DNA from: Clostridiales bacterium
Lineage (GTDB): Bacteria; Bacillota; Clostridia; Oscillospirales; Oscillospiraceae
Reading direction: 5' to 3'
Assembly (NCBI GenBank): GCA_021201475.1
Contig: JAJQEV010000120.1
Coordinates: 1-64,000 of the forward strand
DNA length: 64,000 nt
Shown: positions 1,531 to 38,201 of the stretch, in pieces
Position numbering within the stretch: position 1 is the first letter of the stretch
Layout of the letters: each line of letters begins with the position of its first letter
Made by a program: the position numbers and the translations under genes
Notes under the pieces: generated by a model
The model's database searches: none
What the model saw: only the letters and a program-made list of their open reading frames with translations
Told to the model about the DNA's origin: nothing

Positions 1531-2052
1531 CTACCGTGGACACATCGCGCCGCCGGAAAAGGGATGCCTTGCATGATTGGCGATATAATCAGGGACGTAG
1601 GGTTCCTCCATGGGAGCGTTCATCCGCTCCTGTTCATGTTGATCTTTTATCGCTCTGCGCACCATCAGCTTCCATTGGTGTTGTTCGTATTTCTCCTGAC
1701 GCTGCACCCGTTTTCGCTCTGCGAGGATACGGTTATGCGTGTCATAGATTGCTGAGATGGCCTGATATGGATTATCAAGATACTTTCCGCAGGCAACCTC
1801 CAGCGAGTTCATGGGAACAGGGGTAAATGCCATCACGCGCGCCCAATAGCGTTTTCCGTTGATACGGACGCCCTTTGTGTCTTTCCTCCGTGTAGCGACA
1901 ACAGGTACGGTCAAGACCTGCGTATCATCGAGTTGCCGGATGACTACAAAATAATCAGCCTGGACAGACAGAAGGGATTTATCCCGGCATTCTGTGTTCA
2001 ATTTACAGATGCAGCCTCTGTAAAGGTCACATCCGGCAGTGTTCTTATCCAT
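1531..2052 (-). CDS. Hypothetical protein coupled to the third serine recombinase
   Basis: The start MDKNTAGC at 2052 is chosen because AGGAGG lies nine bases upstream; longer frames have no such site. It begins 8 bases inside the recombinase gene ending at 2045, which suggests translational coupling. The product has 173 residues with an N-terminal cysteine cluster (AGCDLYRGCICKLNTEC), a middle section with KGVRINGKRYWARVMAF, and a basic helical tail (RILAERKRVQRQEKYEQHQ). No family is recognised. The tight link to recombinase genes suggests a partner in site-specific recombination, possibly a directionality factor; that is inference. Confidence 0.75.
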   Translation of the reverse strand: MDKNTAGCDLYRGCICKLNTECRDKSLLSVQADYFVVIRQLDDTQVLTVPVVATRRKDTKGVRINGKRYWARVMAFTPVPMNSLEVACGKYLDNPYQAISAIYDTHNRILAERKRVQRQEKYEQHQWKLMVRRAIKDQHEQERMNAPMEEPYVPDYIANHARHPFSGGAMCPR

Positions 2053-5424: not shown

Positions 5425-5438
5425 GGGTTCCTCCTTTC

Positions 5439-7067
5439 TCAGCCTGCCTGTCTGCCGCAGAGTTCAACGTATTCGGCAGCATAAGCGTATTCATCCCTGT
5501 ATTTGAACTGGATTTCGACTGCTTTATTGTCATAGACCAGAATGCGGTCAACCAGTGCCACCAGCACCCGGCGGTCTAATTCCTCGATATTCTGATATTG
5601 GGAAAACGCCTGCACCCAGGCACGATTGCCCATGCCGGAAGCAGCGGCCTGATTCTGTTCCTTCTTCATACGCTGGACTGCATCGGTTTTATCTTCAATC
5701 ACCTTGTTATAGGCATTGCGGAAATCCGTGTATTCTGTCTTAGTGATGATCCCGTCAGCTAAATCCTCGTACAGACGGAGCTTGCGCTTCTTGTACTGCT
5801 CAATTTCTTCCTCCAGCCGGGTGATCTGCGCTTCATAATTAAAGACGCGCCGGTCTTCCATGGGAAGGCGCTCCAGATAGGCCATGACTTCATCCAGGTG
5901 CATGACCGTCTCGATCTGGTCGTGGACGGCATGGAACACCACTTCCCGAAGTTTGGCCTCGCTGATGGAGTGAGGTGTGCAGCTGTGCGTTTTCCTGTTC
6001 CTGCTGCAATTATAATAAACGTATTTCTTGCTGCCTCTTGTGATTGTCCTGCGAACCATGCCCTGGCCGCAGTCCCCACAGTAGAGGAAGCCGGAGAATA
6101 AATAGTGCTGGCCCTGTGCGTCGGTCGCCCGCATATCCCGCTGAAGCAATTCTGCAACAGCAAGGAAATCTGCATAGGAAACCAGCGCCTCATGGGTCGC
6201 CTCCACCCGTATCCACTCACTTTCATCCTTTGGCCGGATGTCATGAACCTTGTGGTTCGGGGTGCCGCGCTTGCCCTGGGTGAGAACACCCAGATAGACC
6301 TCATTTTTTAATATCCGGGCAACCGTGTTGTACTCCCACTGGGGAAGTTCACTGCGCCGGAAAGCGGTCTGGAATTTGACTCCCTGCAAACGCTTATGTT
6401 CCATCGGTGTCGGTACGCCGCTCTGATTCAGGCGCTCCGCGATGCGCAGGATGGGAAAGCCGTCCTTGAACATCCCGAAGATCATGGTGACGACTTCGGC
6501 AGCGTCATCATCTATCACAAGACGGTTTTTGTCCTCTGCGGACTTGACATAGCCATAAGGGGCAAAGGAACCGACATATTCTCCTTTGCGCCGCTTGACT
6601 TCCAGATTGGTACGGATTTTTACCGAGATGTCCCGGCAGTAGATGTCATTGACAAGATTTTTGAAAGGCAGTGTGATCGCGTCCGACGCGCTCCCCGGCG
6701 CGAGGCTGTCATAGCAGTCGTTGACGGCGATGTAACGGATACCGAGGGACGGGAAAACCTTCTCCAGATAGTTCCCGGCGTCAATGTAATTCCTCGAAAA
6801 TCGGCTAAGGTCTTTACTGATCGCGCAGTCGATTTTGCCGGAACGCATATCGGCCAGCATACGCTGGAAGCCGGGGCGATCCATGTTGGTGCCGGTATAA
6901 CCGTCGTCCTCATCGTAAATCTCCACCAGCTCCAGGTCAGAATGGCGGCTGATGTATTCCATGCAGATCGCCTTCTGGCTGGTGATGGAATTACTTTCGC
7001 CGTTTTCGTTGTCCTCACGGGACAGACGGGCATATATCCCGGTGCGGTAAATCTTTTCAGGCATCAT
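5439..7067 (-). CDS. Large serine recombinase (first of three)
   Basis: A 542-residue recombinase and first gene of the recombinase operon. The start is set at the ATG-ATG pair 7067/7064, which follows GGAGGT by about five and eight bases; a longer frame to 7151 lacks support. Motifs: GIYARLS (Ser16), EDDGYTGTNMDRPGF, KDLSRFSRNYIDAGNYLEKVFPSLGIRYIAVNDCYD, then YGYVKSAEDKNRL, a zinc ribbon (CGDCGQGMVRR...CSRNRKTHSC) and a coiled coil. Most closely resembles TndX-type enzymes of Clostridia elements. The upstream 160 bases contain inverted repeats and would hold its promoter. Confidence 0.93.
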   Translation of the reverse strand: MMPEKIYRTGIYARLSREDNENGESNSITSQKAICMEYISRHSDLELVEIYDEDDGYTGTNMDRPGFQRMLADMRSGKIDCAISKDLSRFSRNYIDAGNYLEKVFPSLGIRYIAVNDCYDSLAPGSASDAITLPFKNLVNDIYCRDISVKIRTNLEVKRRKGEYVGSFAPYGYVKSAEDKNRLVIDDDAAEVVTMIFGMFKDGFPILRIAERLNQSGVPTPMEHKRLQGVKFQTAFRRSELPQWEYNTVARILKNEVYLGVLTQGKRGTPNHKVHDIRPKDESEWIRVEATHEALVSYADFLAVAELLQRDMRATDAQGQHYLFSGFLYCGDCGQGMVRRTITRGSKKYVYYNCSRNRKTHSCTPHSISEAKLREVVFHAVHDQIETVMHLDEVMAYLERLPMEDRRVFNYEAQITRLEEEIEQYKKRKLRLYEDLADGIITKTEYTDFRNAYNKVIEDKTDAVQRMKKEQNQAAASGMGNRAWVQAFSQYQNIEELDRRVLVALVDRILVYDNKAVEIQFKYRDEYAYAAEYVELCGRQAG

Positions 7068-7120
7068 GCCTACCTCCATTTCTTCATATCGTTTACACGG
7101 AAAGGCAGCGCCTGCGCCCG

Positions 7121-7175
7121 AAAAGCATACAGGAACAAAGCCGCAGAGCATAGCCCCGTGACCTTGTTCCTGTAT
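7121..7175 (-). terminator. 12-bp perfect inverted repeat between mazF-like operon and recombinases
   Basis: ATACAGGAACAA (7127-7138) and TTGTTCCTGTAT (7164-7175) are perfect complements around a 25-base loop. On the minus strand a short run CTTTT follows, so it can terminate the operon ending at 7228. A second inverted repeat, GGGGTGT/ACACCCC (7213-7219 and 7230-7236), overlaps the stop codon of that operon. The gap also lies just before the first recombinase gene, so one of these repeats could instead bind a regulator or recombinase. Confidence 0.5.
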
Positions 7176-11245: not shown

Positions 11246-11383
11246 TCTGGTATGATTTTGGGAAGGAAATCGGTATCGTTTTTGGAAGAAATCCGGCATC
11301 ATTTTCGGAAGGAATCTGGCATCGTTTCTGGAAGAAATCCGGTATCATTTTTGGAAGGATTCTGGCATCATTTTCGGAAGGAT
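11246..11383. repeat. Six tandem 22-24 bp repeats, iteron-like
   Basis: Six head-to-tail units start at 11246, 11270, 11292, 11315, 11338 and 11361, with consensus TCYGGYATCRTTTTYGGAAG plus GAA/AAA/GAT. The last four are exactly 23 bases. Weaker half-units flank the array (near 11213-11245 and 11384-11395). The unit length is not a multiple of three and no frame stays conserved, so this is DNA-level repetition. About two helical turns per unit puts every copy on the same face, as in plasmid iterons or cooperative operators. It lies between a Com-like gene and a GAF/SARP-like activator gene. Confidence 0.85.
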
Positions 11384-26800: not shown

Positions 26801-27441
26801 GAAAGGACATCCACAACCGTATCCTGAATAAAATCGAAGTCCTGCCGGGAGTTTTCCCAAGCTGAACCATATTCTTCTTCAAAAGCGGCTTTGAACTCAT
26901 CCAACCGACCCTCATCAGACAGCCGACGCTCCAGATCGGCTAGATGGGGCATAGAGCCGCAGAAGCCCTGCATCTCATTGAACACCTTCAGGAAGACATT
27001 CACGATAGCATCTTTGTCCTGCTTGCTGCCCGAATCGCTCTTAGAGTCAATGTTGAACAGGATCACGTCAGTTGGAGTGTCTGCCGCCAGCTTCATATCG
27101 GCCAGCACCATGCGGTCAACGATTTTATCATCGTCAATAAAATAGTCCAGAGCCTTTTTGTCCCCAACCGCCTGATTCTTCAACAGGTAGGACAGGATTT
27201 TCAGAAAGTGAGATTTACCACTTCCGAAGAAGCCGGAAATCCATACCCCCATTTTGGGGGTCATCCCGACAATGCCCTTTTTATAAGCGGCAAAGAAATC
27301 TGCAAAATGCCGCTGCAACTCCTTTGTAACGACGTATTCCTCCAGCTCCTGCGCGACATTCGTTTCTTCTCCCTGGCCTACGATGATAACGCCCTGAATT
27401 TCACGGTCGATTTCCTTACGGAACATTTCTTTAATCAGCAT
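23806..27441 (-). CDS. brxC: BREX ATPase BrxC
   Basis: A 1211-residue P-loop ATPase (DUF499-related BrxC/PglY family). The start MLIKEMFRKEIDREIQGVI at 27441 has AGAGG seven bases upstream. Walker A GFFGSGKSHF spans residues 70-79 and a Walker B VVFLVDEVGQYIG lies near 257. The middle holds helical and winged-helix-like parts; residues about 1120-1165 are a charged coil (LARKKAAEEARRRREQEKKQ). BrxC is thought to couple ATP use to recognition of foreign DNA together with PglX and PglZ. It begins 17 bases after the brxB stop. The usual length is about 1200 residues. Confidence 0.95.
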   Translation of the reverse strand: MLIKEMFRKEIDREIQGVIIVGQGEETNVAQELEEYVVTKELQRHFADFFAAYKKGIVGMTPKMGVWISGFFGSGKSHFLKILSYLLKNQAVGDKKALDYFIDDDKIVDRMVLADMKLAADTPTDVILFNIDSKSDSGSKQDKDAIVNVFLKVFNEMQGFCGSMPHLADLERRLSDEGRLDEFKAAFEEEYGSAWENSRQDFDFIQDTVVDVLSDMGFMSESAARNWCEKAVEPYQISIEDFAKRVKSYIDKKGNNHHVVFLVDEVGQYIGDNSKLMLNLQTVTEELGKECMGKAWVIVTSQQDIDSITQVKGNDFSKIQGRFDTRLSLSSANVDAVIKKRILEKTDTAAQSLRLYYDQKATVIKNLIVFNDGVEKKLYSSADNFSEVYPFVPYQFNLLASVLTSIRTHGASGKHLSEGERSMLALFKESAMQLMNEETGAIVPFHKFYDALENFLDHSHKGVIIRAYDNSQINPEGKEKDVFAINVLKTLFMIKYVLEIESNLENITSLMIEHIDDDRIELKGRVEEALKVLMRQMLVQKNGNLYVFLTDEEQEINREIDSQNVEMAEVINKVSEMIFEDIFKEKKYQYPAFGGRYAFSFNQTVDDRPYKANQKYDIGLRILTPWYEGGMDDATLRMMSGQGREVLVVLPNDAAFLEEIRVYLKIEKFLRLNTSTQLTKYETIKEAKRVEMRERNGNAKLYLTESLKDATIYVNGDIARVQAKEVNSRINEAIGRLVQTVYHKLSYIEAAMGEADIRKMFKVTNQLSLGLEGGSETNGHALDDVLSFIAGNSRIHMKTSMKTVKDRFMKAPYGFVEDDVHWLVARLFKRGDLAFTVNGASVTMMNKSEEEIIGYITKKAFTEKLLMEERIRVSDKDKKAVRDVMKELFHGTSSAEDEDTVMKTFQRYSGNTLHEIERLEPEYRAYKYPGKEVLATGKRLLQSVLQIQTPLEFFQTVSKRQDEFYEFAEDYEPVKAFFGGEQKEIFTRVLDVLAIYEDSKTYIVDQELEDVVAQLRSIVRKPSPYRDIPKLPELRDKFTNAYMKVLDAETGPVLDTIDQARARVLEVLKGKEYEASKRQRYLDQFAEIRDGAERCNNVSLLRGFADKADALKLRLLNEMDALDAELARKKAAEEARRRREQEKKQGGDQPMVSEPPVEYKVRTTRNLSMKKVAGTSSWRLESPEDVEKYVAELRKSLLAQLDDDTIVNIEL

Positions 27442-27458
27442 TTCAGTACCTCTTTCCA

Positions 27459-28037
27459 TCACTTCACGAGCTTGAAAGCCCGATAGTAATTGTCGTCTTT
27501 TATCTCGTTAAACAGGATCAATTCCTGCTCATTGTAAGTTCCAGGGAAGAACAGCACCACCGGCACCCTGACAAATGCCTGATGCAGATTGTTCAGCACC
27601 TTATGGGAACGCAGGATAGGATAGCATTTCCCGATTCCGGTCAGAAACACAACCGCATTCTCCGGTGTATGGTCTTTGATGTACTGGACAATCAGGCTGT
27701 CATCATCGTTGATCTTCATGGAATTGTTGACCGCTTTGGTAATCCGGTCAAAGCCACGTTTCTGTTCAAAACCATAGCACTTGTCCATAAAGTTCTTATC
27801 AATCAGAAAGTCTATGATGATGTCATAGAGATCGAATACAACCAAGTCAAATCCGTCTGTTCCTTTCTGATTTTTGTTCTGTAGATACGCGATGCGCTCA
27901 CGAACCTCCAGTTCCTGTTCCGGGGGATAATCAAAAATCCAGTAATTCACTTCATTCGCACGTCCGTTGCTGCTACGAAAGGAAGGCTTCCGGATCGCCT
28001 TTTCCATTTCGTCCAGCCGTGCAGCCAGGTCTGCCAT
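27459..28037 (-). CDS. brxB: BREX protein BrxB (DUF1788)
   Basis: A 192-residue protein beginning MADLAARLDEMEKAIRKPSF. The sequence matches DUF1788: NEVNYWIFDYPPEQELEVRERIAYLQNK...FDLVVFDLYDIIIDFL...NAVVFLTGIGKCYPILRSHKVLNNLHQ...VPVVLFFPGTYNEQELILFNEIKDDNYYRAFKLV. BrxB is a small core BREX protein of unknown activity needed for defence. Its ATG overlaps the TAA of brxA (TAATG), so the two are translationally coupled. The strand order VVLFFPGTY suggests a P-loop-like or Rossmann-like fold without a Walker motif. Confidence 0.94.
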   Translation of the reverse strand: MADLAARLDEMEKAIRKPSFRSSNGRANEVNYWIFDYPPEQELEVRERIAYLQNKNQKGTDGFDLVVFDLYDIIIDFLIDKNFMDKCYGFEQKRGFDRITKAVNNSMKINDDDSLIVQYIKDHTPENAVVFLTGIGKCYPILRSHKVLNNLHQAFVRVPVVLFFPGTYNEQELILFNEIKDDNYYRAFKLVK

Positions 28038-28639
28038 TATCTCACCCCCGTCAGTGCCTTTACGAGAACACCCATGTCATGCGCATTCAGCCACCGCTCA
28101 AACACTGGGTCTAAAATCGGTCTGAATATCTTTCTTGTTTCTTTTGCCTTGTCCGTGATACCGGCTTCATAGAGCATGGTTTTATAGCAGCGCCCCAGAC
28201 GGTTCAGCGTGATGTCCGTCCATTCTGCCACCTTTTCATTCTGCTGCTGTTTGTCCTTAAAGAAAATCCGGACATCACTGTCAGCCAGCTCATTGCTGCC
28301 GATAATCATTTTTTCCCTGACGACTTCATACACAAAGTCAAAAAACAGCGTATCACTGGCCATTACAGCCGCAAGATTAAATAATTTCTGCGTGGACAGG
28401 TCGCTTTCCGAAAAAACAGAATAAAAGCTGTCATCCAGACTCTGCACCCGCGTTGTTACTGTACTACAAATCTGTTTCGCTCTCGCGGGGGTAGATGTCG
28501 CAAAAAGGTTCTCCTCCTGGCTTAGCTGTTTGATGTCCTCGTATGTTTTGCCTTCGCCACGAAGCTCGACGACCTTCCGAAATTCCATAAACCAGAAGGA
28601 CAGTTTAACGGCTCCCGCGCTGTATTCTTTCCGCTCCAT
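28037..28639 (-). CDS. brxA: BREX protein BrxA (DUF1819)
   Basis: A 200-residue protein, first core gene of the BREX operon. The pattern YSAGAVKLSFWFMEFRKVVELRGEGKTYEDIKQLSQEENLF...RAKQICSTVTTRVQSLDDSFYSVF...FNLAAVMASDTLFFDFVYEVVREKMIIGSNELADSDVRIFFKDKQQQNEKVAEW is the DUF1819 family. Known BrxA proteins bind DNA through winged-helix-like folds. GAGGAG lies eleven bases before the ATG. It starts 24 bases after the small XRE gene, which therefore shares the operon promoter. Confidence 0.94.
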   Translation of the reverse strand: MERKEYSAGAVKLSFWFMEFRKVVELRGEGKTYEDIKQLSQEENLFATSTPARAKQICSTVTTRVQSLDDSFYSVFSESDLSTQKLFNLAAVMASDTLFFDFVYEVVREKMIIGSNELADSDVRIFFKDKQQQNEKVAEWTDITLNRLGRCYKTMLYEAGITDKAKETRKIFRPILDPVFERWLNAHDMGVLVKALTGVR

Positions 28640-28662
28640 ATAGTCAGATTCTCCTCATGATG

Positions 28663-28902
28663 CTATTTTACCTGATCCGGTGTCCCATTTTCAGGACTCT
28701 CATCCGGAATAATTTCTACAATGTCCTCTATATTGCAATGCAGACTCAGGCATATCCGCTCCAGCACCTCCACCATCACGTTATCACCACTTGACAGTTT
28801 CGCTACTGTTGCAGGACTGACATTCGCCACCTGGCACAAGTCCTTTTTCTTCATGTCTCGATCAATCAGCAACTTGAAAAGTCTCTTATAAGATACAGCC
28901 AT
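28663..28902 (-). CDS. Small XRE regulator heading the BREX operon
   Basis: A 79-residue protein, MAVSYKRLFKLLIDRDMKKKDLCQVANVSPATVAKLSSGDNVMVEVLERICLSLHCNIEDIVEI, a compact YozG-like Cro/CI helix-turn-helix. The ATG at 28902 follows GAGG by seven bases; the frame also opens at a TTG two codons earlier. It lies directly upstream of brxA, in the same direction with a 23-base gap, and divergently from the DNA polymerase gene. It is well placed to autoregulate the BREX operon from the 240-base intergenic region, which is inferred from position alone. Confidence 0.87.
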   Translation of the reverse strand: MAVSYKRLFKLLIDRDMKKKDLCQVANVSPATVAKLSSGDNVMVEVLERICLSLHCNIEDIVEIIPDESPENGTPDQVK

Positions 28903-29142
28903 CGTCAAACCTCACTTATCCTTGTCTGCTATGAAAAACAATAATTGAATCTACCGCTGACCATTATAACATAGATACGAGAAAAAGCGAAGAAGGAATT
29001 TTGCGTTCTCAGAAGGTTTTTGGGCGAGCGCAACAAGAATTTCGGCGCATGAATTGATTTTTATCCTGCCAATTTTGCATTATCTATGGTATACTGTACT
29101 CGGCTACTGGACTCAGATGAAATACGATTGGAGGTGAACCGC
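28903..29142. promoter_or_regulatory. Divergent promoter region between BREX and polymerase operons
   Basis: The 240-base gap serves the BREX operon leftward and the Y-family polymerase operon rightward. On the plus strand TATACT near 29089-29094 is a good -10 box; the -35 (CTGCCA, 18 bases upstream) is weak. No gene is seen. No LexA/DinR-type box (CGAACNNNNGTTCG) was found, so an SOS response is not obvious. Confidence 0.45.
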
Positions 29143-30651
29143 TTGTCAGACCGTTCTTATATTGCCATCGACCTGAAATCTTTCTACGCATCAGTGGAAT
29201 GTGCGGAGCGTGGGCTTGATCCGTTGACCACCAATCTGGTCGTTGCAGATAAAAGCCGGACAGAAAAAACAATCTGCCTTGCGGTGTCACCATCCCTGAA
29301 ATCTTTTGGCATCTCCGGGCGCGCAAGGTTATTTGAAGTCGTCCAGCGTGTGAAGGAAGTCAACAACGACCGGCTGCGCCGCGCACCCGGACATACTTTT
29401 ACCGGTTCATCAAGCGACATCAATGAACTGAACGCAGACCCGTCCCTGTCACTTGACTATATCGTGGCCACCCCGCAGATGGCACACTACATCCAGCGCA
29501 GCACGGAGATTTATCAAGTCTATCTCCGTTACATTGCTCCGGAAGACATTCACGTTTACAGCATTGACGAGGTATTCATGGATGTAACGAATTATCTGCG
29601 GACGTATAATCTCACGCCCCACGAGTTGGCTATGAAAATGATCCAAGATGTCTTGAAAGAAACCAGCATTACTGCCACTGCCGGAATCGGCACAAACCTT
29701 TATCTCTGCAAGATCGCAATGGACATCGTGGCAAAGCACATTCCTGCCGACAAAGATGGTGTGCGCATCGCAGAGCTGGATGAGATGAGTTATCGGCAAA
29801 AGCTGTGGGCGCATCAGCCTATCACGGACTTTTGGCGCGTGGGACGTGGTTATGCCAGACGGCTGGAAAAAATGGGGCTGTACACGATGGGAGACATCGC
29901 AAGGTGTTGTCTCACCAGCTACGGAGAAAATCAGCTGTACAAGGAGTTTGGTATCAATGCAGAATTGCTGATTGATCACGCATGGGGCTGGGAGCCTTGC
30001 CGTATCTCCGACATCAAATCGTACAAGCCGGAGAATAACAGCATCAGCTCCGGGCAGGTATTGCAGTCTCCATATGAATTTGAAAAGGCGAAGCTGGTGG
30101 TCAGAGAAATGGCGGATGCACTTTCACTCGATCTTGTGGACAAGGGAATGGTGGCCGACCAGATCGTTCTCACCATTGGCTATGACATTGAAAACCTGAC
30201 TGACCCTGCGCGGCAAAAATCATATAAAGGCGAAGTCACCACTGACTATTACGGCAGAAAAATTCCGAAGCAAGCTCATGGGTCCATTAACCTGGGGAGG
30301 CAGACGGCATCCACAACACTTATCACAAAAGCGACGATGGAGCTGTTTGATCGCATTGTTGACCGGAACCTTTTAGTGCGCCGGATGTATGTGGTTGCCA
30401 ACCATGTTGTCAGTGAAGATATGGTCAACCCACCGGAGCCGGAACAGCTTGATTTATTTACTGATTACGGCGCTCTTGAGAAACAGCGTGAGAAGGAACA
30501 GGCAGAACTGGACAGAGAGAAACGCAGGCAAAAAGCGGTTCTGGAAATTCAAAAGAAGTTCGGAAAGAACGCGCTGCTGAAAGGTATGAATCTTGAGGAA
30601 GGAGCCACAGGCCGAGATCGCAATGCGCAAATCGGTGGTCACAAAAAATAG
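29143..30651 (+). CDS. Y-family DNA polymerase (UmuC/UvrX-like)
   Basis: A 502-residue translesion DNA polymerase. The start is set at a TTG (29143) because GGAGG lies eight bases before it; the frame opens earlier without a ribosome site. The catalytic carboxylates are present: AIDLKSFYASVECAERG (first aspartate) and VYSIDEVFMDVTNYL (the SIDE motif). Steric and finger motifs LVVADKS, TEKTICLAVSPSLKSFGISGRARLFEV and ATAGIGTNLYLCKIAMD follow, then the helix-hairpin-helix thumb and little finger. The tail QLDLFTDY resembles a sliding-clamp binding motif. It copies past DNA damage with low fidelity. A YolD-like gene follows at 12 bases, the usual pair on mobile elements. Confidence 0.93.
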   Translation: MSDRSYIAIDLKSFYASVECAERGLDPLTTNLVVADKSRTEKTICLAVSPSLKSFGISGRARLFEVVQRVKEVNNDRLRRAPGHTFTGSSSDINELNADPSLSLDYIVATPQMAHYIQRSTEIYQVYLRYIAPEDIHVYSIDEVFMDVTNYLRTYNLTPHELAMKMIQDVLKETSITATAGIGTNLYLCKIAMDIVAKHIPADKDGVRIAELDEMSYRQKLWAHQPITDFWRVGRGYARRLEKMGLYTMGDIARCCLTSYGENQLYKEFGINAELLIDHAWGWEPCRISDIKSYKPENNSISSGQVLQSPYEFEKAKLVVREMADALSLDLVDKGMVADQIVLTIGYDIENLTDPARQKSYKGEVTTDYYGRKIPKQAHGSINLGRQTASTTLITKATMELFDRIVDRNLLVRRMYVVANHVVSEDMVNPPEPEQLDLFTDYGALEKQREKEQAELDREKRRQKAVLEIQKKFGKNALLKGMNLEEGATGRDRNAQIGGHKK

Positions 30652-30663
30652 AGGGGACAGAAA

Positions 30664-31110
30664 ATGGCTGACAGAAAAATCGAAGACTACCAGGACATTA
30701 TCAACCTGCCGCACTACGTCTCTAAAAATCGTCCACATATGTCCATGATAGACCGGGCGGCACAGTTTTCTCCATTTGCCGCACTCACTGGCTATGATGC
30801 TGCTGTAAAAGAGACTGCACGACTGACAGATCAGCGCGTCGAGCTGAATGATGATGAACGGCAAAAGGTTTCAGACCGGCTCACTATGCTCCAGTCCTGT
30901 CTGAAGGAGTCGCCCACTGTAGAGATCACATACTTTATTCCTGATGAGAAAAAAGCAGGCGGCGAGTATAGTACCGTGACCGGCATTGTGAAGAAGCTCG
31001 ATGAATTTCAAAGACTGATTATCATGATGGACGGCACCAAGATTCCAATCGAAGAAATCATAGACGTGGGCGGTGCAATGTTCCGCTCTATAGAGGACTC
31101 GTTTGCGTGA
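30664..31110 (+). CDS. YolD-like protein
   Basis: A 148-residue protein next to the Y-family polymerase. The YolD pattern is clear: INLPHYVSKNRPHMSMIDRAAQFSPFAALTGYDAAVKETARLT...ELNDDERQKVSDRL, then ITYFIPDEKKAGGEYSTVTGIVKKLDEFQRLIIMMDGTKIPIEEIIDV. YolD-like proteins accompany UmuC/UvrX-type polymerases and have been proposed to play a UmuD-like role; the C-terminal half has an Sm/WYL-like beta fold. It is co-transcribed with the polymerase, with GAGGGGAC before its ATG. Confidence 0.9.
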   Translation: MADRKIEDYQDIINLPHYVSKNRPHMSMIDRAAQFSPFAALTGYDAAVKETARLTDQRVELNDDERQKVSDRLTMLQSCLKESPTVEITYFIPDEKKAGGEYSTVTGIVKKLDEFQRLIIMMDGTKIPIEEIIDVGGAMFRSIEDSFA

Positions 31111-31149
31111 TTGCTCTCGATAATAGAAAATCACAAGGAGGACGCTATA

Positions 31150-31641
31150 ATGTTCGAAATTAAAAATGGGCGGCTGTACCCAGACCTCAAGCCAATGTGC
31201 TTATCGTTCGAGATTCCGGAAGACTTTTGGATTGACCCCTGTACAGAGGTCGTGAAGCCTAATTTTATCTTTTTCCGTACTGCTGATAAAACTGTGTCTG
31301 TTGAAATCACCTTCACATATAAAAACTGTGACACTACCGCGGAGGAAGTCCTCGATACGCTGGAGAGCTGTCCCAAGGAGAAGCTGGATGGGCCGTATCC
31401 CATCAATGTGAATGGTATATCTGGTCACTATGCTTTTTGTGCCAACAGAATCGCACAGTATATAGTTGACCTGGACATAGGCAGACCAGTCTATGACCCT
31501 TCTGGTGAACAGCTCATTGATCTCATTGATTTTGTGGTAACAGTCAATTCAGAAGAAGGCCCAAAGGCAATGGAGGACATTCATGCCGCTGCAAAGAGAA
31601 ATGATGTTGTGACCCTGCTAAACAGTCTCCGTATGGAGTAA
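31150..31641 (+). CDS. Hypothetical protein following the YolD-like gene
   Basis: A 163-residue protein starting MFEIKNGRLYPDLKPMCLSFEIPEDFWID; the ATG at 31150 follows AGGAGG by eight bases. It is mixed alpha/beta without a membrane segment (KTVSVEITFTYKNCDTTAEEVLDTLESCP... GISGHYAFCANRIAQYIVDLDI). No family recognised. It lies 39 bases after the YolD-like gene and before a bidirectional terminator, so it is the third gene of the polymerase operon. A role in the same process is possible but unsupported by motifs. Confidence 0.75.
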   Translation: MFEIKNGRLYPDLKPMCLSFEIPEDFWIDPCTEVVKPNFIFFRTADKTVSVEITFTYKNCDTTAEEVLDTLESCPKEKLDGPYPINVNGISGHYAFCANRIAQYIVDLDIGRPVYDPSGEQLIDLIDFVVTVNSEEGPKAMEDIHAAAKRNDVVTLLNSLRME

Positions 31642-31693
31642 AATGCAGGCTTTTCGGACTTTTTTTCATTCTGAGAAGCTAAGTCGCAAGCAG

Positions 31694-31757
31694 GGCCTTT
31701 GTCTATACAAAGGCCAAAAAGCCGCCATTCCGCCCTCCGGCGGCCTGACGGTTTTTT
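31694..31757. terminator. Bidirectional terminator between convergent genes
   Basis: Two hairpins lie side by side: GGCCTTTG (31694-31701)/CAAAGGCC (31708-31715), and GCCGCC (31721-31726)/GGCGGC (31739-31744). The second is followed by TTTTTT at about 31752 on the plus strand and by TTTTTGG on the minus strand, so it can serve the polymerase operon from the left and the XRE gene from the right. Confidence 0.65.
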
Positions 31758-31854
31758 GCTTGTTGGGGCATATCCCCAATCCCCTTTTTTGAAGAACACC
31801 ACTGGCGTGGTGGCTACGCATTCCTGCGGAACGCTGATAACACAATACAGCAAA

Positions 31855-32130
31855 TCAAGAAACCTCGCTGTCAGCAACGCTTTCAACAAACCAACGATAG
31901 TCTTCTTCCTCCGGGTTAAATACTTTCACAACGTCGAGGTTCAGCGCATAGCAAAGCCTGGCGAATTTGAAAGCATTACCGTGCCTGGCATCCCGCTCGA
32001 ATATGCTGATGACGCCTTTTGAAAGTCCAATTTTCTTCCCCAGTTTCTCCTGCGACAGACCGGTTGCCTTTCTTGCTGCCCTGATACGTTGCCCTGCGAG
32101 TTTTCCGTCTCGGTCATCGTTTCTTCTCAT
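31855..32130 (-). CDS. XRE-family regulator next to the nuclease-RT gene
   Basis: A 91-residue protein, MRRNDDRDGKLAGQRIRAARKATGLSQEKLGKKIGLSKGVISIFERDARHGNAFKFARLCYALNLDVVKVFNPEEEDY, a standard Cro/CI helix-turn-helix. The frame also opens at a GTG at 32154, but a TATAAT box at 32170-32165 would put transcription start at about 32158, so the inner ATG is preferred. Upstream of that box is a tract of GTCG decamers that recurs before the nuclease-RT operon, making this protein a possible controller of both. Confidence 0.85.
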   Translation of the reverse strand: MRRNDDRDGKLAGQRIRAARKATGLSQEKLGKKIGLSKGVISIFERDARHGNAFKFARLCYALNLDVVKVFNPEEEDYRWFVESVADSEVS

Positions 32131-32164
32131 GTTGTAAACCCACCGCCTTTCCACGAAGATGTCG

Positions 32165-32238
32165 ATTATATTTTAGCGGGTTTAACGAGTAGTGTCACTG
32201 TCTGCTTCTGTCGTATTCTGTCGCCTATTGTCGCTTCC
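32165..32238 (-). promoter_or_regulatory. Promoter with phased TGTCG decamers upstream of the XRE gene
   Basis: On the minus strand a perfect -10 box TATAAT covers 32170-32165, while the -35 position (about 32193-32188, ACTACT) is poor. Directly upstream, TGTC(G) begins at 32199, 32209, 32219 and 32229 on the plus strand, exactly 10 bases apart (TGTCTGCTTC, TGTCGTATTC, TGTCGCCTAT, TGTCGCTTCC). A weak -35 next to same-face repeats is the layout of an activator-dependent promoter. Confidence 0.55.
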
Positions 32239-32276
32239 GTAAATGCCGTCCGGATTTCGTGTTCGTCTCCCTCGTA

Positions 32277-35165
32277 TCACAGACCATACTTTTTCAAGAT
32301 GTACTGGAAGTAATTCTCCAGTTCATATTTCGCCTCGTTCGGGATGCGCTGATATTTCAGAACCTCCGGGATAACAACAGCGGATGTGTTTTTGTTATCG
32401 GAAGTGATATGAAAGACAACTCTTTTCCGGCCATCCAGGTGCAGATTTTTTATCTCGTATCCATTGTCCAACCAACATTGACTGATGTTCATAAAGCCCG
32501 TCCGATACCAATACTCTTTTCGCAGCGCGGTGGCTCCGAGCGGAACCCCCATGATTTCCTCAATCTGCGAAAAGGTGAGCGTGACAGAATTTTTATCACA
32601 GGTGCGGAAAAATTCAGAGAGAGCATAATACTTCTGACCAATCGGTTTACGTTCTTCCTCCAGTTGTAAAAGCAAATCCATAACTTCATCGAGGGAAGAC
32701 GGTAGGCTTTCTGTATCGACATAATCGAACGAGGAATTCATACATCTTTTGTGGACATAGGCTTTTCGCTTCACTCTGCTCGGCTGGCTTTCGTCAACGT
32801 CCACGAGCGTTTTTTCCTCATCGCGCAGGATACTCCTGCCGCAGTAATAGCACTTTCCATTTTGCCTGTTCCAGATAGAGCGGTATACGCCTGTGACACT
32901 GAGTATTTGCCTTTCCGCAGTCCTGCTCTCCAGATAGTCAAATTCGATATATGGATTGAGATTTGTTTTGACGGGATTGTATGGATAGAAAAGAGAGTCT
33001 GACATAAATTTCACTCTGACTTCCTTTTTGTCTGTAAGGGCATAGCAATGCCGTCCCTCATAATCCACATACCAATATTTTTCCAATATCTTTTCCCGCG
33101 TCCACTTCGGATGTTTCTGCTCACAAAGCTGGAGCAGTAATGCCGATATGTAGACATCCATCTGACGAAAGGCAGCGGAAGCCTCGGATACTTTATGATA
33201 CGTCACCCAGCCATCAATCTTTTTGTTAATTTTCGCTATCAACGATTTCTGAGAACCAGTATAACCCTCTATGGTTTCCTTCATGGATGTCATGAAGCGT
33301 TCAACCGCAGAGTCCGATGGCCGCGCATATAGTTGATCCCCGCGCTTTTCATATGTCCTCGACATGAAAGTAAAACCATCTTTGATATTGATAACACGGC
33401 TTTTCTCTGTAGACAGTTCCAGACCACGTTCACCTAAAAAATCGCGAATCACTCGCTTTATAACATTCGCAGTTTCTTCACTTCGCACAGCGATGATAAT
33501 ATCATCAGCATAGCGGAGCAGATTGCCGTTGGCATAATCAATATCGCCATTGGGGTACAACCGGCTGAAAATATATTCTTGCAGACCGTCCAATACCATA
33601 TTTGCGATGATGGGGGAAATGGAGCAGCCAATGCCGATTCCCACATCCATCGGGAACAGTTCTCCCGCAAAGACATATCCCGCGCCGAGAAATTCCCTCA
33701 GTACATTCTCCGCCATGGGGATGTGCTTCAGTATCCAATCGTGGCTGATGTTTTCATAGCACTTTCGGACATCAGCAATAAAAGCCCATTCTGGTGCGCC
33801 CTCACCGGAAAATGCAGAGATGATATATTCATTCATGTCGTATTGGGAGCGCCCCTTCCGATAAGCGAAAGACTTCCTGTCTCCCCACGACTCAGCAATC
33901 GGATCAAGAGCATACGCATACAGTGTCTGCATGGCACGATCATAATAGGTTTCAACATGGACGCGGCGCTGTTTGCCTTGCTTGCTCTTAATGAGGAGCA
34001 GACGCGAAGGAAGCGCACGGTAGCCCTTTGATGTAAGCGATAGTGCAGCCGTCATCTTCTCCTCAGAAGTCATCCATTTTATACGGTCAACACCGGAACC
34101 AGCCGCCGTGCTGCATACATGACGAACAGCAAGGAGCTTTGCATCAATGGAGAATACGATTTTCTTCTGCCACTTTTCTATCAGGTCAGGGCTGTGAGTA
34201 TATGCGGATTTTGCGAGTGCCATCTGCATTGTCTGGAGATGTTCCTCCGCTGCATTCCAGTCTATGCTTTCCCACAGTCCCGCCAAATCAGTAAATTTCG
34301 TATTTCTGAAAGGAATACGTCGCGTCTCCATGTCAATGAGATCATTATATTTGTACTTTACCGGTCTGGGATTTTCCTGAACGGGTGCCTTTTCGCCTGC
34401 CGATAAATCAATATCGAGCATGATCGGGCAATGGTCTGAACCGTAAACATCGGTCAGCATTGTCGATTCATGGATATTGCCAGCAAGTGATTCCGATGCA
34501 AGAAAATAATCAAGACGCCACCCACGGTTTTCCTCACGTTTGTGGAGGCGATTTGACCACCAGGAGAACTTTCCTTTTTCATCAGGATGAATCTGCCGGT
34601 AGCAGTCAACAAAACCGCTGTTTATCAACGCTATAAGATTATCCCGTTCTTCGGAACTAAAACCTTCGGCATTCCATTCCTGCCAGTTGCTTTCACTGTA
34701 AATATCCTCATCAGCTATCGGGACATTGAAGTCCCCACATACAACAACGGGCTTTTTTCGATCCAGCCTTGTCAAATATTCCTGCAATGCTTCATCCCAG
34801 TCAGCGCGGTAATCTCTGCGCTTCCCAGACCGTTGCGAATTGGGGAAGTAGCAGTTGACGAAATAAAACGACTTGTATTCCAGAGTTATAATACGGCCTT
34901 CCGTATCAAAGTATGGATTGCCAATTCCCCGATCAACAGTCACCGGCGTGTATTTTGTGAGTATAAGGGTGCCGGAATATCCTTTTCTTCCGTCACAAAA
35001 ACTCCAGTAGGCTTCGTACCCGCCAAGTTCCGCCAGAAGGTATGGCTCATTTACCTTTGTCTCCTGGAACGCATATATGTCTGCGTCATATTTGCGAAGG
35101 AATGTCGAGAGGCCATGATTCCATGTGGCACGAAGCCCGTTGACATTCCATGATATGAATTGCAT
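32277..35165 (-). CDS. Exonuclease III - reverse transcriptase - zinc module fusion protein
   Basis: A 962-residue fusion; the ATG at 35165 (MQFISWNVNGLRATW) follows GAGGTG. Residues 1-255 are a complete exonuclease III/AP endonuclease domain: N7, E35 (FQE), D145-N147 (GDFNVP), D219 and D244-H245 (SDH). About 385-610 is a reverse transcriptase like those of group II introns: RVHVETYYDRAMQTLYAYALDPIAE, FAYRKGRS, motif A FIADVRKCY (D465), motif B GIGCSISPIIANMVLDGL and RYADDII (D554, D555). A maturase-type thumb follows (IDGWVTYHKVSEASAAFRQMD). C772/C775 with H805/C808 form a zinc site like HNH, but the first His of HNH is replaced (VDVD). The last ~110 residues (LTFSQIEEIMGVPLGATALRKEYWYRTG...WLDNGYEI) resemble the DUF7662-type domain. 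No intron RNA is seen around it. Confidence 0.9.
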   Translation of the reverse strand: MQFISWNVNGLRATWNHGLSTFLRKYDADIYAFQETKVNEPYLLAELGGYEAYWSFCDGRKGYSGTLILTKYTPVTVDRGIGNPYFDTEGRIITLEYKSFYFVNCYFPNSQRSGKRRDYRADWDEALQEYLTRLDRKKPVVVCGDFNVPIADEDIYSESNWQEWNAEGFSSEERDNLIALINSGFVDCYRQIHPDEKGKFSWWSNRLHKREENRGWRLDYFLASESLAGNIHESTMLTDVYGSDHCPIMLDIDLSAGEKAPVQENPRPVKYKYNDLIDMETRRIPFRNTKFTDLAGLWESIDWNAAEEHLQTMQMALAKSAYTHSPDLIEKWQKKIVFSIDAKLLAVRHVCSTAAGSGVDRIKWMTSEEKMTAALSLTSKGYRALPSRLLLIKSKQGKQRRVHVETYYDRAMQTLYAYALDPIAESWGDRKSFAYRKGRSQYDMNEYIISAFSGEGAPEWAFIADVRKCYENISHDWILKHIPMAENVLREFLGAGYVFAGELFPMDVGIGIGCSISPIIANMVLDGLQEYIFSRLYPNGDIDYANGNLLRYADDIIIAVRSEETANVIKRVIRDFLGERGLELSTEKSRVINIKDGFTFMSRTYEKRGDQLYARPSDSAVERFMTSMKETIEGYTGSQKSLIAKINKKIDGWVTYHKVSEASAAFRQMDVYISALLLQLCEQKHPKWTREKILEKYWYVDYEGRHCYALTDKKEVRVKFMSDSLFYPYNPVKTNLNPYIEFDYLESRTAERQILSVTGVYRSIWNRQNGKCYYCGRSILRDEEKTLVDVDESQPSRVKRKAYVHKRCMNSSFDYVDTESLPSSLDEVMDLLLQLEEERKPIGQKYYALSEFFRTCDKNSVTLTFSQIEEIMGVPLGATALRKEYWYRTGFMNISQCWLDNGYEIKNLHLDGRKRVVFHITSDNKNTSAVVIPEVLKYQRIPNEAKYELENYFQYILKKYGL

Positions 35166-35211
35166 AGTACACCTCTTCACAAAACCAGCCTAAAGCGTGG
35201 CACTCCCTCTT

Positions 35212-35625
35212 TTAAGAACAAGCCCCAAGGGAATCTAAAATGCGCATTTCAGCTACGTTTAACCCCTTTAGTGCATTTGGGAATGTGACAATCAGGGAAA
35301 AGCCGAGGTCATTACTTGGCGAATAGAAAACAGCCACCCGGCGAAGATCGGATTTATCTGTGGCAGCGACCGCCAGTACCCCATAAAGGTTGGGCATCGA
35401 GATTAATTCTTTCCACTTGCGAACATCCGGCAGGGTACCTCCGCCATATTCACCATTTCTGGAAAAAGACAGCGATGCCGCTTCCCCTGTGGCCTTGCTG
35501 CTGGTGAAAAAGGTGACTTCGGGGTTCGTGAGGTCTTCCCGCAATAAAAAAGCGTAGAGTGCGGAGAACATTTTCTCCTTCGTTTCGTACTTGACTTTGT
35601 AGCCGTTCAAATCATTTTCTTTCAT
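35212..35625 (-). CDS. Hypothetical partner of the nuclease-RT fusion
   Basis: A 137-residue soluble protein, first gene of the two-gene unit with the nuclease-RT fusion (46 bases between them, same strand). It starts MKENDLNGYKVKYETKEKMFSALYAFLLREDLTNPEVTFF with AGAGAG upstream. It looks mixed alpha/beta (YGVLAVAATDKSDLRRVAVFYSPSNDLGFSLIVTFP). No family recognised. Because nothing else intervenes and the only upstream promoter region is the phased-repeat area, it is likely made together with the fusion protein and could be its regulator, cofactor or inhibitor. Confidence 0.75.
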   Translation of the reverse strand: MKENDLNGYKVKYETKEKMFSALYAFLLREDLTNPEVTFFTSSKATGEAASLSFSRNGEYGGGTLPDVRKWKELISMPNLYGVLAVAATDKSDLRRVAVFYSPSNDLGFSLIVTFPNALKGLNVAEMRILDSLGACS

Positions 35626-35989
35626 AGCTTTCTCTCTTTCGTAATAGGAATTTGGTCGCTAAGACGATTCCGCCAGCGACCGCTAATAAATATAGCACAG
35701 CCACACGATATATGAAAGGAAATGTCTTGAAATTACGACGTTTTTCAGGCTTGAAGCACTGAATATTTTTGTCGTTTGTTGTCGAATCACCTCATAGATT
35801 GTCGAATATACTCGAATTGCCTCGAAAAGCGTCGAACGATTTGTCTTGAGCAGTAACGCCTAAAATGGTAGGATAATGTCGAAGTGTCGAAAGATGGTTC
35901 GACAGTTAAAACTGATGAACTGTTCGCTCTCCTCCATTTTGTGTTACTACATCAGAATAATTGCTGTACGCCAGCAGGAAAGGACTACC
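35626..35989. promoter_or_regulatory. Divergent control region with a helically phased GTCG decamer tract
   Basis: This gap has no gene. Seven consecutive 10-base units start at 35771: GTCGTTTGTT, GTCGAATCAC, CTCATAGATT, GTCGAATATA, CTCGAATTGC, CTCGAAAAGC, GTCGAACGAT. GTCGAA recurs at 35878 and 35886, and an inverted copy TTCGAC lies near 35898. Ten-base spacing puts all copies on one face of the helix. On the plus strand GATAAT at about 35871 could be a -10 for the gene at 35990. On the minus strand only weak boxes precede the 137-residue gene. The same motif and phase occur at 32199-32238. Confidence 0.6.
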
Positions 35990-36346
35990 ATGGAAAAGAT
36001 AAGCTGCATTTCACCAATGGGAGCAAACCCAGATTTTCGGGATCAGGTTTATGACCTGATGAACGGCTTCGTTGACCTCGATGAAGAACCCGTTCCAATA
36101 AGTCAGTACGTTGCAAACGAATACGCCGAAGGGAAAAGGTGTGAACGACTGTATGATGAGGTTTACAATATGAAGCTGCACTTGTTTACACGGCTTCGCT
36201 CTGACGACGATGAAGAATTGGAGCAGCTTGTAAACCGTCTATGCGAGATTGAGAGTATTATGAGCCGCAAGATGTTCGATTATGGCTGGTTCTTTGCGAA
36301 GCGGGATACTATGGAAAAAAGAATGACAGAGGCGACAGAGGCATAA
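35990..36346 (+). CDS. Hypothetical protein, single plus-strand gene
   Basis: A 118-residue helical protein starting MEKISCISPMGANPDFRDQVYDLMNGFVDLDEEP; the ATG at 35990 follows AGGAAAGGA. The rest is a predicted helical bundle (YVANEYAEGKRCERLYDEVYNMKLHLFTRLRSDDDEELEQLVNRLCEIESIMSRKMFDYGWFFAKR). Similar small helical proteins occur as orphan genes in Clostridia ICEs without known function. It is divergent from the nuclease-RT operon and convergent with the relaxase gene, and may share control by the phased repeats. Confidence 0.75.
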   Translation: MEKISCISPMGANPDFRDQVYDLMNGFVDLDEEPVPISQYVANEYAEGKRCERLYDEVYNMKLHLFTRLRSDDDEELEQLVNRLCEIESIMSRKMFDYGWFFAKRDTMEKRMTEATEA

Positions 36347-36361
36347 CTTCTCACCCAAAAA

Positions 36362-36413
36362 CAAAAAAAGTACCGACAGGCTATCACAGTGCTTGTGACA
36401 ACCTGCCGGGTTA
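36362..36413 (-). terminator. Terminator of the relaxase gene
   Basis: On the minus strand CCGGCAGGTTGTCAC pairs with GTGATAGCCTGTCGG (15 bp with wobbles, loop AAGCACT), followed by TACTTTTTTTGTTTTTG. It lies just past the relaxase stop at 36417 and also faces the end of the plus-strand gene at 36346. Confidence 0.85.
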
Positions 36414-36416
36414 AAA

Positions 36417-37826
36417 TTATCTGATAGGCTTCTTTTTCTGATCTTGCTGTCTATTCTGTTCTTCCTGTTCCTGTTGCATCTCGAAGAATACCTCCACATT
36501 GTGCCGTGCCTTCTGATATTCCTGCATCTCAGACCGGGCAGCGCGATATTCCGCGTAAGTCGCTTTTTTCTCCGCCAGCACCTGGGCATATTCCGCACTC
36601 AGGTCTTTGACCTTCGGCAGCTTTTTCACGCCCAGCTGGTCAAAGGCGTTTTTTGCCTCCTTGTGCAGTGTGATTTCAGTCCGGTTCGCCTCAAAGAACT
36701 TCTTGCTGTATCCGGACTTTCGATACTCTACATAGGTGTCCCTGGTCTTAGAATAGTTGATGATGTGGGTCTTGAGCGCGGCGATCTCTACCAGCCGCTT
36801 TTCGGATGCTTTCAGCCGGTCGCTGAGTTCATCAAACTGGGCGGAAGCGGCATCGGTTTTCTGTTGCAGATCATCCAGACTTTCAATGCCATGTTCCCGG
36901 ATGAAAATCATGGTCTGTGCCATCTGTTTCAGATTATAGACTGTCGCCCAGCGCTGGTAGCCGATGCCTTTGGTCTGCATCTTCTCATCAATATCCACCA
37001 GTAGATTGAACTTCGGTTTTCCATGAACCTGGCTGCTTTTGAATTTGGAGCGATGGGCTTTTTCACCCAGAAGCACCGCACGGATTTCCTCCTCGGTGTA
37101 GCCTTCTCCCAGGGAGCAGAACCGGATAAACCGCTTCTGGCCTTTGCCCCGGAGCGCGGTGTTCTTTCCTCGCTTCACCTCATAACCCTTTTGAGCAAGA
37201 AGCTGTAGAAATTCCTCGAAATCCTTCGGCTTTTGCTTCATGACAGCATCAATGTCCGCACAGATGGTATCCCGGAAGGTTTCTTTCTTTGGATACTCGG
37301 TGCGTTTCACTCGCTCCCGATAAGGCCTTTTCTCTATAATAGATAGCCCATGTTCAACACAGATAATATCACTGCATTTCTGTACGGCCAGACCGGACAG
37401 GTGGAAGTCCTTGAATTTTCGCTTGCAGTCGATGGTGGTGGAGTTGAAAATGATATGATTATGGATATGCGCCCGGTCTACATGGGTAGCCACGATGAAA
37501 GCGTGTTTCCCTTTGGTAAACCGCATGGCCAGCTCATAGCCGACCTTGTTTGCTTCCTCCGGCGTGATTTCCCCCGGCTTGAAGGATTGGCGTATCTGAT
37601 ACGCGATGACATTGCTTTTCTGCTGTCGCCCGGTGATGTGCTGGTACTGCCGTTTGGCAAGCAGAAATTCTTCATCCACGGTCATGGGGTCACAGGCATA
37701 CGCCGTGACCAGACTTCCTTTTGCCGTTTTTTCCGGGTTCTGCGCGTAGTCCGTCCGGTCACGCAGGCATTGCGCCAGCGTTTTCCCTTTATTCAGGTGC
37801 ATCGCGATCAGCCGCGTCGCCGCCAT
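36417..37826 (-). CDS. Conjugative relaxase (MOBP-like)
   Basis: A 469-residue relaxase that nicks the origin of transfer and pilots the strand. The metal-binding histidines lie in HVDRAHIHNHIIFNS (H120, H122, H124), and Y27 in RTDYAQNPEKT is a candidate catalytic tyrosine. The N-terminal domain covers about residues 1-190, then KGYEVKRGKNTALRGKGQKRFIRFCSLGEGYTEEEI and a long C-terminal coiled coil. The match is to the relaxase/mobilisation nuclease family of Clostridia ICEs. A terminator upstream means it has its own promoter or relies on read-through. It ends the transfer module before the cargo begins. Confidence 0.93.
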   Translation of the reverse strand: MAATRLIAMHLNKGKTLAQCLRDRTDYAQNPEKTAKGSLVTAYACDPMTVDEEFLLAKRQYQHITGRQQKSNVIAYQIRQSFKPGEITPEEANKVGYELAMRFTKGKHAFIVATHVDRAHIHNHIIFNSTTIDCKRKFKDFHLSGLAVQKCSDIICVEHGLSIIEKRPYRERVKRTEYPKKETFRDTICADIDAVMKQKPKDFEEFLQLLAQKGYEVKRGKNTALRGKGQKRFIRFCSLGEGYTEEEIRAVLLGEKAHRSKFKSSQVHGKPKFNLLVDIDEKMQTKGIGYQRWATVYNLKQMAQTMIFIREHGIESLDDLQQKTDAASAQFDELSDRLKASEKRLVEIAALKTHIINYSKTRDTYVEYRKSGYSKKFFEANRTEITLHKEAKNAFDQLGVKKLPKVKDLSAEYAQVLAEKKATYAEYRAARSEMQEYQKARHNVEVFFEMQQEQEEQNRQQDQKKKPIR

Positions 37827-37841
37827 ATAATCACCATCCCT

Positions 37842-37877
37842 TCAAAAAAAGAAAGAGCTGCCCGGTGAGGACAGCCC
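37842..37877 (-). terminator. Terminator between small membrane gene and relaxase
   Basis: GAGCTGCCC (37855-37863) pairs with GGACAGCCC (37869-37877) with wobbles around a 5-base loop. On the minus strand it is followed by TTTCTTTTTTT. It would reduce read-through from the membrane-protein gene into the relaxase gene, a likely control point. Confidence 0.75.
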
Positions 37878-37901
37878 ATAATAAAATCGTGTACTTTACT
37901 C

Positions 37902-38201
37902 TCATGAGTGCAGGAACCCGACCAGCGCGTCGGTCATGGTATCCAGCAATGTCTCCAATACAGCGGCGACGAACGTAACGGCCACACACAATGCCGCCAG
38001 GACAACCATCACCACAACGGAAGTCCACCACTGGTTTACAGCAGCGACCACGCCGCAGAGGATAATCACCAGGATAAAAAAGCCGATGATGTAGGAGGAA
38101 AGATTGTCCACGACCTTCAACAGCACTGATGCAACAGCGCAGATGAGGATCAGCGGAAGGGTCAGGAGCTTCAACGGGAGCTTTATGAGTGTCATCAACA
38201 T
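37902..38201 (-). CDS. Small membrane protein of the relaxase region
   Basis: A 99-residue hydrophobic protein starting MLMTLIKLPLKLLTLPLILICAVASVLL, with about three membrane segments (LLTLPLILICAVASVLLKVV; YIIGFFILVIILCGVVAAV; VVVMVVLAALCVAVTFVAAVLE). A TTG start at 38210 is also possible. Similar proteins sit between mobC and the relaxase in Clostridia ICEs; their role is unknown. It could anchor the relaxosome or belong to the secretion channel. Confidence 0.75.
   Translation of the reverse strand: MLMTLIKLPLKLLTLPLILICAVASVLLKVVDNLSSYIIGFFILVIILCGVVAAVNQWWTSVVVMVVLAALCVAVTFVAAVLETLLDTMTDALVGFLHS

What the first reader, a model, noticed from the sequence alone, without database searches (positions are those of the whole stretch)
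35771..35840. Seven helically phased 10-bp GTCG units upstream of the nuclease-RT operon
Units starting with G/C-TCG recur every 10 bases exactly (35771 to 35831), with further GTCGAA at 35878 and 35886. All copies face the same side of DNA. This is not coding and not a known terminator; it looks like a cooperative binding tract for a regulator or a DNA-bending or target site for the system itself.
Basis: seen in the sequence. Interest (0 to 1): 0.72.

Follow-up and report, generated by a model that had tools for sequence, protein, structure and literature searches.

The report
Spo0A-box array on a conjugative element
A mobile DNA element in a Clostridia-type genome carries a row of evenly spaced copies of the sequence that the sporulation master switch Spo0A binds, which suggests that the element's genes are wired to the host's developmental state; no binding has been measured.

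Summary
The tract is real and not chance: TCGAA recurs at 35782, 35802, 35812, 35822 and 35832 (0 of 5000 dinucleotide shuffles match). Six of seven registers carry TCG; the third (35791, CTCA) does not. In 200 genomes of the family, pairs of TGTCGAA pile up at 10 and 20 bp spacing (45 and 18 of 124 listed rows). In-phase pairs lie beside Spo0A-type genes in 13 of 45 loci, out-of-phase pairs in 0 of 40. A matrix trained on boxes outside the window ranks 35800 first of 127,980 positions and the tract far above everything else. The host has Spo0A with an unchanged recognition helix and a Spo0A-like paralogue with its own phased boxes. The tract is the only array of its kind in the host genome and sits on an integrative conjugative element. 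It is not conserved at nuclease-RT homologues (0 of 6), and its orientation points weakly to the DUF6809 gene. Best reading: a multi-box Spo0A operator captured by the element.

The parts
35770..35836 (+). Phased 0A-box array, seven 10-bp registers: TGTCGTT (35770, partial), TGTCGAA (35780, perfect), CCTCATA (35790, not a box), TGTCGAA (35800, perfect), ACTCGAA (35810), CCTCGAA (35820), CGTCGAA (35830)
   Evidence: matrix score 48.6 for 7 units against 19.7 for the next place in the window and at most 25.2 in 100 shuffles
35877..35883 (+). Perfect 0A box, out of register with the array
   Evidence: score 11.3
35885..35891 (+). Perfect 0A box, 8 bp after the previous one
   Evidence: score 12.9
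35898..35904 (-). Perfect 0A box in reverse orientation; with 35885-35891 it forms TGTCGAA-N6-TTCGACA
35872..35877 (+). Possible rightward -10 (GATAAT) with no good -35, downstream of the array and touching box 35877
   Evidence: Read by eye; not found by the consensus scan; inference only
35689..35716 (-). Possible leftward promoter (TTCATA, 16 bp, TATATT with TG) for the nuclease-RT operon
   Evidence: 1 site found against 1.2 expected in shuffles, so weak
35990..36346 (+). Rightward gene, 118 aa, weak DUF6809 match, start preceded by AGGAAAGGA
35212..35625 (-). Leftward gene of 137 aa without any family match, first of the nuclease-RT operon
32277..35180 (-). ExoIII-like nuclease fused to a group-II-type reverse transcriptase
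36417..37826 (-). Relaxase of the conjugative element

Best explanation
The tract is a multi-box operator for Spo0A (or for the host's Spo0A-like paralogue), placed in a divergent intergenic region of an integrative conjugative element. Head-to-tail 0A boxes about one helical turn apart would let several Spo0A~P molecules bind cooperatively, so that element genes follow the host's starvation or developmental state. Shown here: the array, its motif, its statistical match to the phased boxes beside Spo0A-type genes in the family, and the presence of Spo0A in the host. Inferred: binding, direction of control and target. The more likely target is the rightward DUF6809 gene: the array reads in its direction and ends just upstream of a poor -35, which suits activation, while boxes 35877-35904 lie over or after the likely start, which suits repression at higher Spo0A~P. 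Control of the leftward ORF137-nuclease-RT operon is possible but less supported.
For: TGTCGAA is the published core 0A box; Spo0A contacts G2, C4 and G5, and binding by C. difficile Spo0A-DBD depends on them (PMC3485338, passages). TGTCGAANNNTGTCGAA occurs in 53 of 200 family genomes, against control matches in 5. Listed pair spacings without G095, G163 and G000: 45 at 10 bp, 18 at 20 and 6 at 30, of 124. Pairs near a Spo0A_C gene: 9 of 30 at 10 bp, 4 of 15 at 20/30 bp and 0 of 40 out of phase; Fisher p 1e-4. Four-unit arrays elsewhere: 5 of 25 loci sit just upstream of spo0A; two others lie at histidine-kinase genes. Matrix from other loci: box 35800 ranks 1 of 127,980, tract 48.6 against a shuffle maximum of 25.2. 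Own genome: two Spo0A_C proteins; Spo0A matches 1LQ1/1FC3 with an identical TTASRVERAIRHAIEVAW stretch; the paralogue has phased boxes about 95 bp upstream. Element: relaxase, TraG, TrbL, topoisomerase, serine recombinases.
Against: No binding or expression data. Three of the seven registers lack the contacted G2 and one of those is not a box at all. The canonical spo0A of this host has no phased box upstream, so the strongest local evidence comes from its paralogue and from relatives. DUF6809 homologues (6 other genomes of 250) have no array. Of 80 loci with TGTCGAA triples from named genomes only 4 lie near Spo0A_C genes, and some of those 80 are from phyla without Spo0A. SpoIVB was not found in the host although SpoIIID was, so it is open whether the host sporulates.
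Confidence: 0.78

Rival explanations
1. The array is the operator of an element-encoded regulator, such as the XRE protein at 31855-32154, which controls the nuclease-RT operon.
For: The XRE gene lies 123 bp after the RT gene on the same strand and matches HTH_31 and HTH_3.
Against: The same phased motif occurs in many family genomes, often beside Spo0A genes. XRE proteins usually read palindromes (recalled).
Confidence: 0.08
2. The array is a structural site of the element, such as a centromere, iteron or transfer site bound by a partition, replication or mobilisation protein.
For: Phased direct repeats are typical of such sites (recalled); a ParA gene lies beside one array (L112), a primase beside another (L101), and a ParB-like protein appears to be encoded further along the same contig (read by eye).
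Against: Linkage to Spo0A_C genes in other genomes is strong and depends on phase; the array does not recur at DUF6809 or RT homologues.
Confidence: 0.08
3. The array is a sponge that titrates Spo0A and delays sporulation of the host, rather than an operator of element genes.
For: It is the only such array in the genome. Much longer phased arrays occur beside phage late genes in genus g95. ICEBs1 is known to delay sporulation by devI, likely through Spo0A (PMC8032392, passages).
Against: Only about five to eight usable boxes per copy; placement between two divergent genes fits an operator better.
Confidence: 0.06

Closest known systems
Spo0A 0A-box operators (abrB, spoIIG, spo0A promoters)
   Same: Core TGTCGAA with the contacted G2, C4, G5; tandem boxes at 10 bp (for abrB recalled; for the family); control depends on position relative to the promoter (PMC4168254, passage)
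   Different: Seven registers in a row on a conjugative element, more than the two to four seen beside most Spo0A genes of the family
Phage phi29 promoters repressed by Spo0A (Meijer et al. 2005; title seen in a reference list; content recalled)
   Same: A mobile element that carries 0A boxes and so reads the host's sporulation state
   Different: phi29 is a virulent Bacillus phage; here it is an integrative conjugative element in a Clostridia-type host with a phased array
ICEBs1 devI (PMC8032392; passages)
   Same: A conjugative element coupled to Spo0A and sporulation
   Different: ICEBs1 acts on Spo0A through a protein; here Spo0A would act on the element through DNA boxes

Membership tests
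Spo0A 0A-box operator | Core TGTCGAA with G2, C4, G5 | tested here: met
   Two perfect boxes in the array, three more at 35877-35904; registers 35770 and 35830 keep G2, C4, G5; 35810 and 35820 lack G2
Spo0A 0A-box operator | Tandem boxes in one helical register | tested here: met
   10-bp registers; same spacing preferred in the family
Spo0A 0A-box operator | Spo0A with an intact DNA-binding domain in the same cell | tested here: met
Spo0A 0A-box operator | Lies at a promoter | tested here: inconclusive
   Divergent intergenic region; only weak promoter matches
Spo0A 0A-box operator | Bound by Spo0A~P and changes transcription | not testable with these tools
   Needs footprinting and reporters
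Operator or target of the ExoIII-RT system | Array conserved upstream of homologues | tested here: not met
   0 of 6 loci have an array (best 4-unit match 7-8 mismatches of 20)

The most novel reading that the evidence does not exclude
Mobile elements of gut-type Clostridia repeatedly acquire phased 0A-box arrays that couple them to Spo0A: small arrays as operators, as in this element, and arrays of at least 26-33 units beside phage late genes in genus g95 that act as Spo0A sensors or sponges, for example to time lysis or transfer, or to enter spores.
Probability: 0.3. Interest if true: 0.78.

Novelty: new variant of a known kind. Interest (0 to 1): 0.55.

Why it matters
If true, a conjugative element with BREX and nuclease-RT cargo reads the host's starvation switch directly through DNA boxes, so its expression would change as cells enter development. 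The helical phasing gives a simple genome-wide signature of Spo0A operators in poorly studied gut Clostridia, and the much longer arrays next to phage genes make Spo0A titration by phages a testable idea.

Tried and rejected
Chance: rejected. Conservation at nuclease-RT homologues: tested on six loci (G275 C19, G368 C13, G368 C167, G284 C97, G337 C11, G234 C44) and not found. Conservation at DUF6809 homologues: six loci, none. RNA element: no Rfam match in 27000-38000. Plasmid relatives of the region: none; similar DNA in 400 family genomes: outside the own genome only a 46-bp match in one. First search of genome contigs with the nuclease-RT protein found nothing. The array in the viral contig L182 looked similar but is another minisatellite and was not counted. 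Viral-contig arrays of three or more TGTCGAA: 0 of 18 loci scanned had a Spo0A_C gene nearby; two of the 20 loci (L087, L097) were not in that scan. The share of sites inside long stop-free frames did not separate classes (22 of 30, 34 of 40, 12 of 15). Two 1-mismatch pairs in the own genome (L003, L005) lie in or near coding starts and were judged chance; with up to 2 mismatches the pair itself is not enriched in the own genome (10 matches against 21 for the control). One search lists only its first 150 rows; the spacing count uses those.

Full report
What is there. The 364-bp region between two divergent genes (starts at 35625 and 35990) carries a row of 10-bp units. TCGAA stands at 35782, 35802, 35812, 35822 and 35832; register 35772 has TCGTT and register 35792 has TCATA. 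The chance test is decisive: 0 of 5000 shuffles, and no other place in the window has any 4- or 5-mer five times in seven registers at periods 7-15.

What the unit is. Read from 35770 the unit is TGTCGAANNN. TGTCGAA is the core 0A box of Spo0A, whose G2, C4 and G5 are contacted by the protein; mutation of these bases weakens binding by C. difficile Spo0A-DBD (PMC3485338, passages). Boxes 35780 and 35800 are perfect; 35770 and 35830 keep all three contacted bases; 35810 and 35820 have C at position 2; 35790 is not a box.

Is the phased motif really Spo0A's in this family of bacteria? I tested this on other genomes. (a) The pair TGTCGAANNNTGTCGAA occurs in 53 of 200 family genomes, while the reversed control pattern has matches in 5 genomes. 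(b) With spacing left free from 7 to 33 bp, the 124 listed rows outside G095, G163 and G000 show 45 pairs at 10 bp, 18 at 20 and 6 at 30; most other peaks are multiples of three, as in coding repeats. (c) Of 30 loci fetched for the 10-bp pair, 9 lie next to a gene with a Spo0A_C domain; of 15 loci with 20- or 30-bp pairs, 4 do; of 40 out-of-phase loci, none does (Fisher one-sided p 1e-4). The control used 40 of the out-of-phase rows listed, not all, and the 20/30-bp set 15 of the 24 such rows outside G095, G163 and G000. (d) Four-unit arrays with up to 2 mismatches occur in 25 of 400 genomes, the own one included, against 3 genomes for the control; in 25 loci fetched from the other 24 genomes, 5 are just upstream of spo0A, and two lie at the start of histidine-kinase genes (L109, L111). 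(e) Families found among 44 neighbouring proteins of the loci were led by HATPase_c (6) and Spo0A_C (5). (f) A matrix built from 49 boxes beside Spo0A-type genes in 16 other loci puts box 35800 first and 35780 fourth of 127,980 positions in the window; the tract's seven-unit score is 48.6, the next place in the window 19.7, the highest in 100 shuffled windows 25.2. Those 16 loci were found through the motif, so the matrix is independent of the window but not of the motif.

The host. Its genome has a full Spo0A and a 242-aa Spo0A-like paralogue, both on contig 37. Spo0A aligns to the solved DNA-binding domains 1FC3 and 1LQ1 with an identical TTASRVERAIRHAIEVAW stretch. The paralogue has boxes TGTCGGA, TATCGAA and TGTCGAA at 11- and 10-bp spacing about 95 bp before its start. 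Canonical spo0A has no such boxes in the stretch read upstream of it. SpoIIID is present and SpoIVB was not found, so sporulation itself is uncertain.

The surroundings. The window is an integrative conjugative element: three large serine recombinases at 2045-7151, a topoisomerase, NlpC/P60, TraG-type ATPase, TrbL, coupling protein, relaxase and MobC/NikA, and BrxA/BrxB of a BREX system at 27459-28639. To the left of the tract lies an operon of a 137-aa protein without family match and an ExoIII nuclease fused to a group-II-type RT. To the right is a 118-aa DUF6809-like gene. The ends of the element were not mapped.

Which gene is controlled? Of 17 distinct arrays beside Spo0A_C genes (L100 and L125 are one site), 13 run on the strand of that gene (two-sided p 0.049). 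In the window the array runs on the strand of the DUF6809 gene. The array ends 154 bp before that gene and lies 145 bp from the leftward start. Promoter matches are weak on both sides. The rule that upstream sites activate and sites over the start repress is taken from a passage in PMC4168254, which states it for another regulator and says that Spo0A control also depends on position. So a rightward, activated promoter with downstream repressing boxes is the best guess, and it is only a guess.

Against the nuclease-RT reading. Six loci with homologues of the nuclease or RT, including the one where a separate ExoIII gene directly precedes the RT gene (G275), have no array; best 4-unit matches have 7-8 mismatches of 20.

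Novelty. I found no report of 0A boxes on an integrative conjugative element in the searches made (open-licence papers only; for, 10 of 37 papers were listed and none was read further). Known neighbours are phi29 (recalled) and ICEBs1 devI. The tract is a variant of a known kind of operator in a new place.

Noticed in passing
L102:78-424 (G095 C24), L104:5967-6223 (G163 C56), L103:5975-6041 (G163 C47), L101:4043-4199 (G257 C58): Very long 10-bp phased arrays of TGTCGAA-like units (33, 26, 7 and 15 units) in genus g95; L102 and L104 lie beside terminase, portal, capsid and endolysin genes; those of G095 and G163 end near contig ends, so they may be longer.
   Followed up: partly
window 32277-35180; L045:7414-10259: Fused ExoIII nuclease and group-II-type RT; in G275 the two are separate adjacent genes, with the RT 43% identical. 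No other fused copy was listed among 400 family genomes.
   Followed up: partly
L338:4291-4755, L339:1365-1856 (G046, same genus): Two nearly identical short genes with a Spo0A_C domain and boxes at 10 and 20 bp upstream; one copy lies next to a phage-type lysozyme gene.
   Followed up: partly
window 27459-28639: BrxA and BrxB of a BREX defence system next to the nuclease-RT cargo.
   Followed up: no
window 11246-11382: Tandem repeat of 23/46 bp, unit TCTGGCATCATTTTTGGAAGGAA, six copies.
   Followed up: no
window 35654-35681: Inverted repeat GGTCGCT ... AGCGACC in the likely leader of the leftward operon (read).
   Followed up: no
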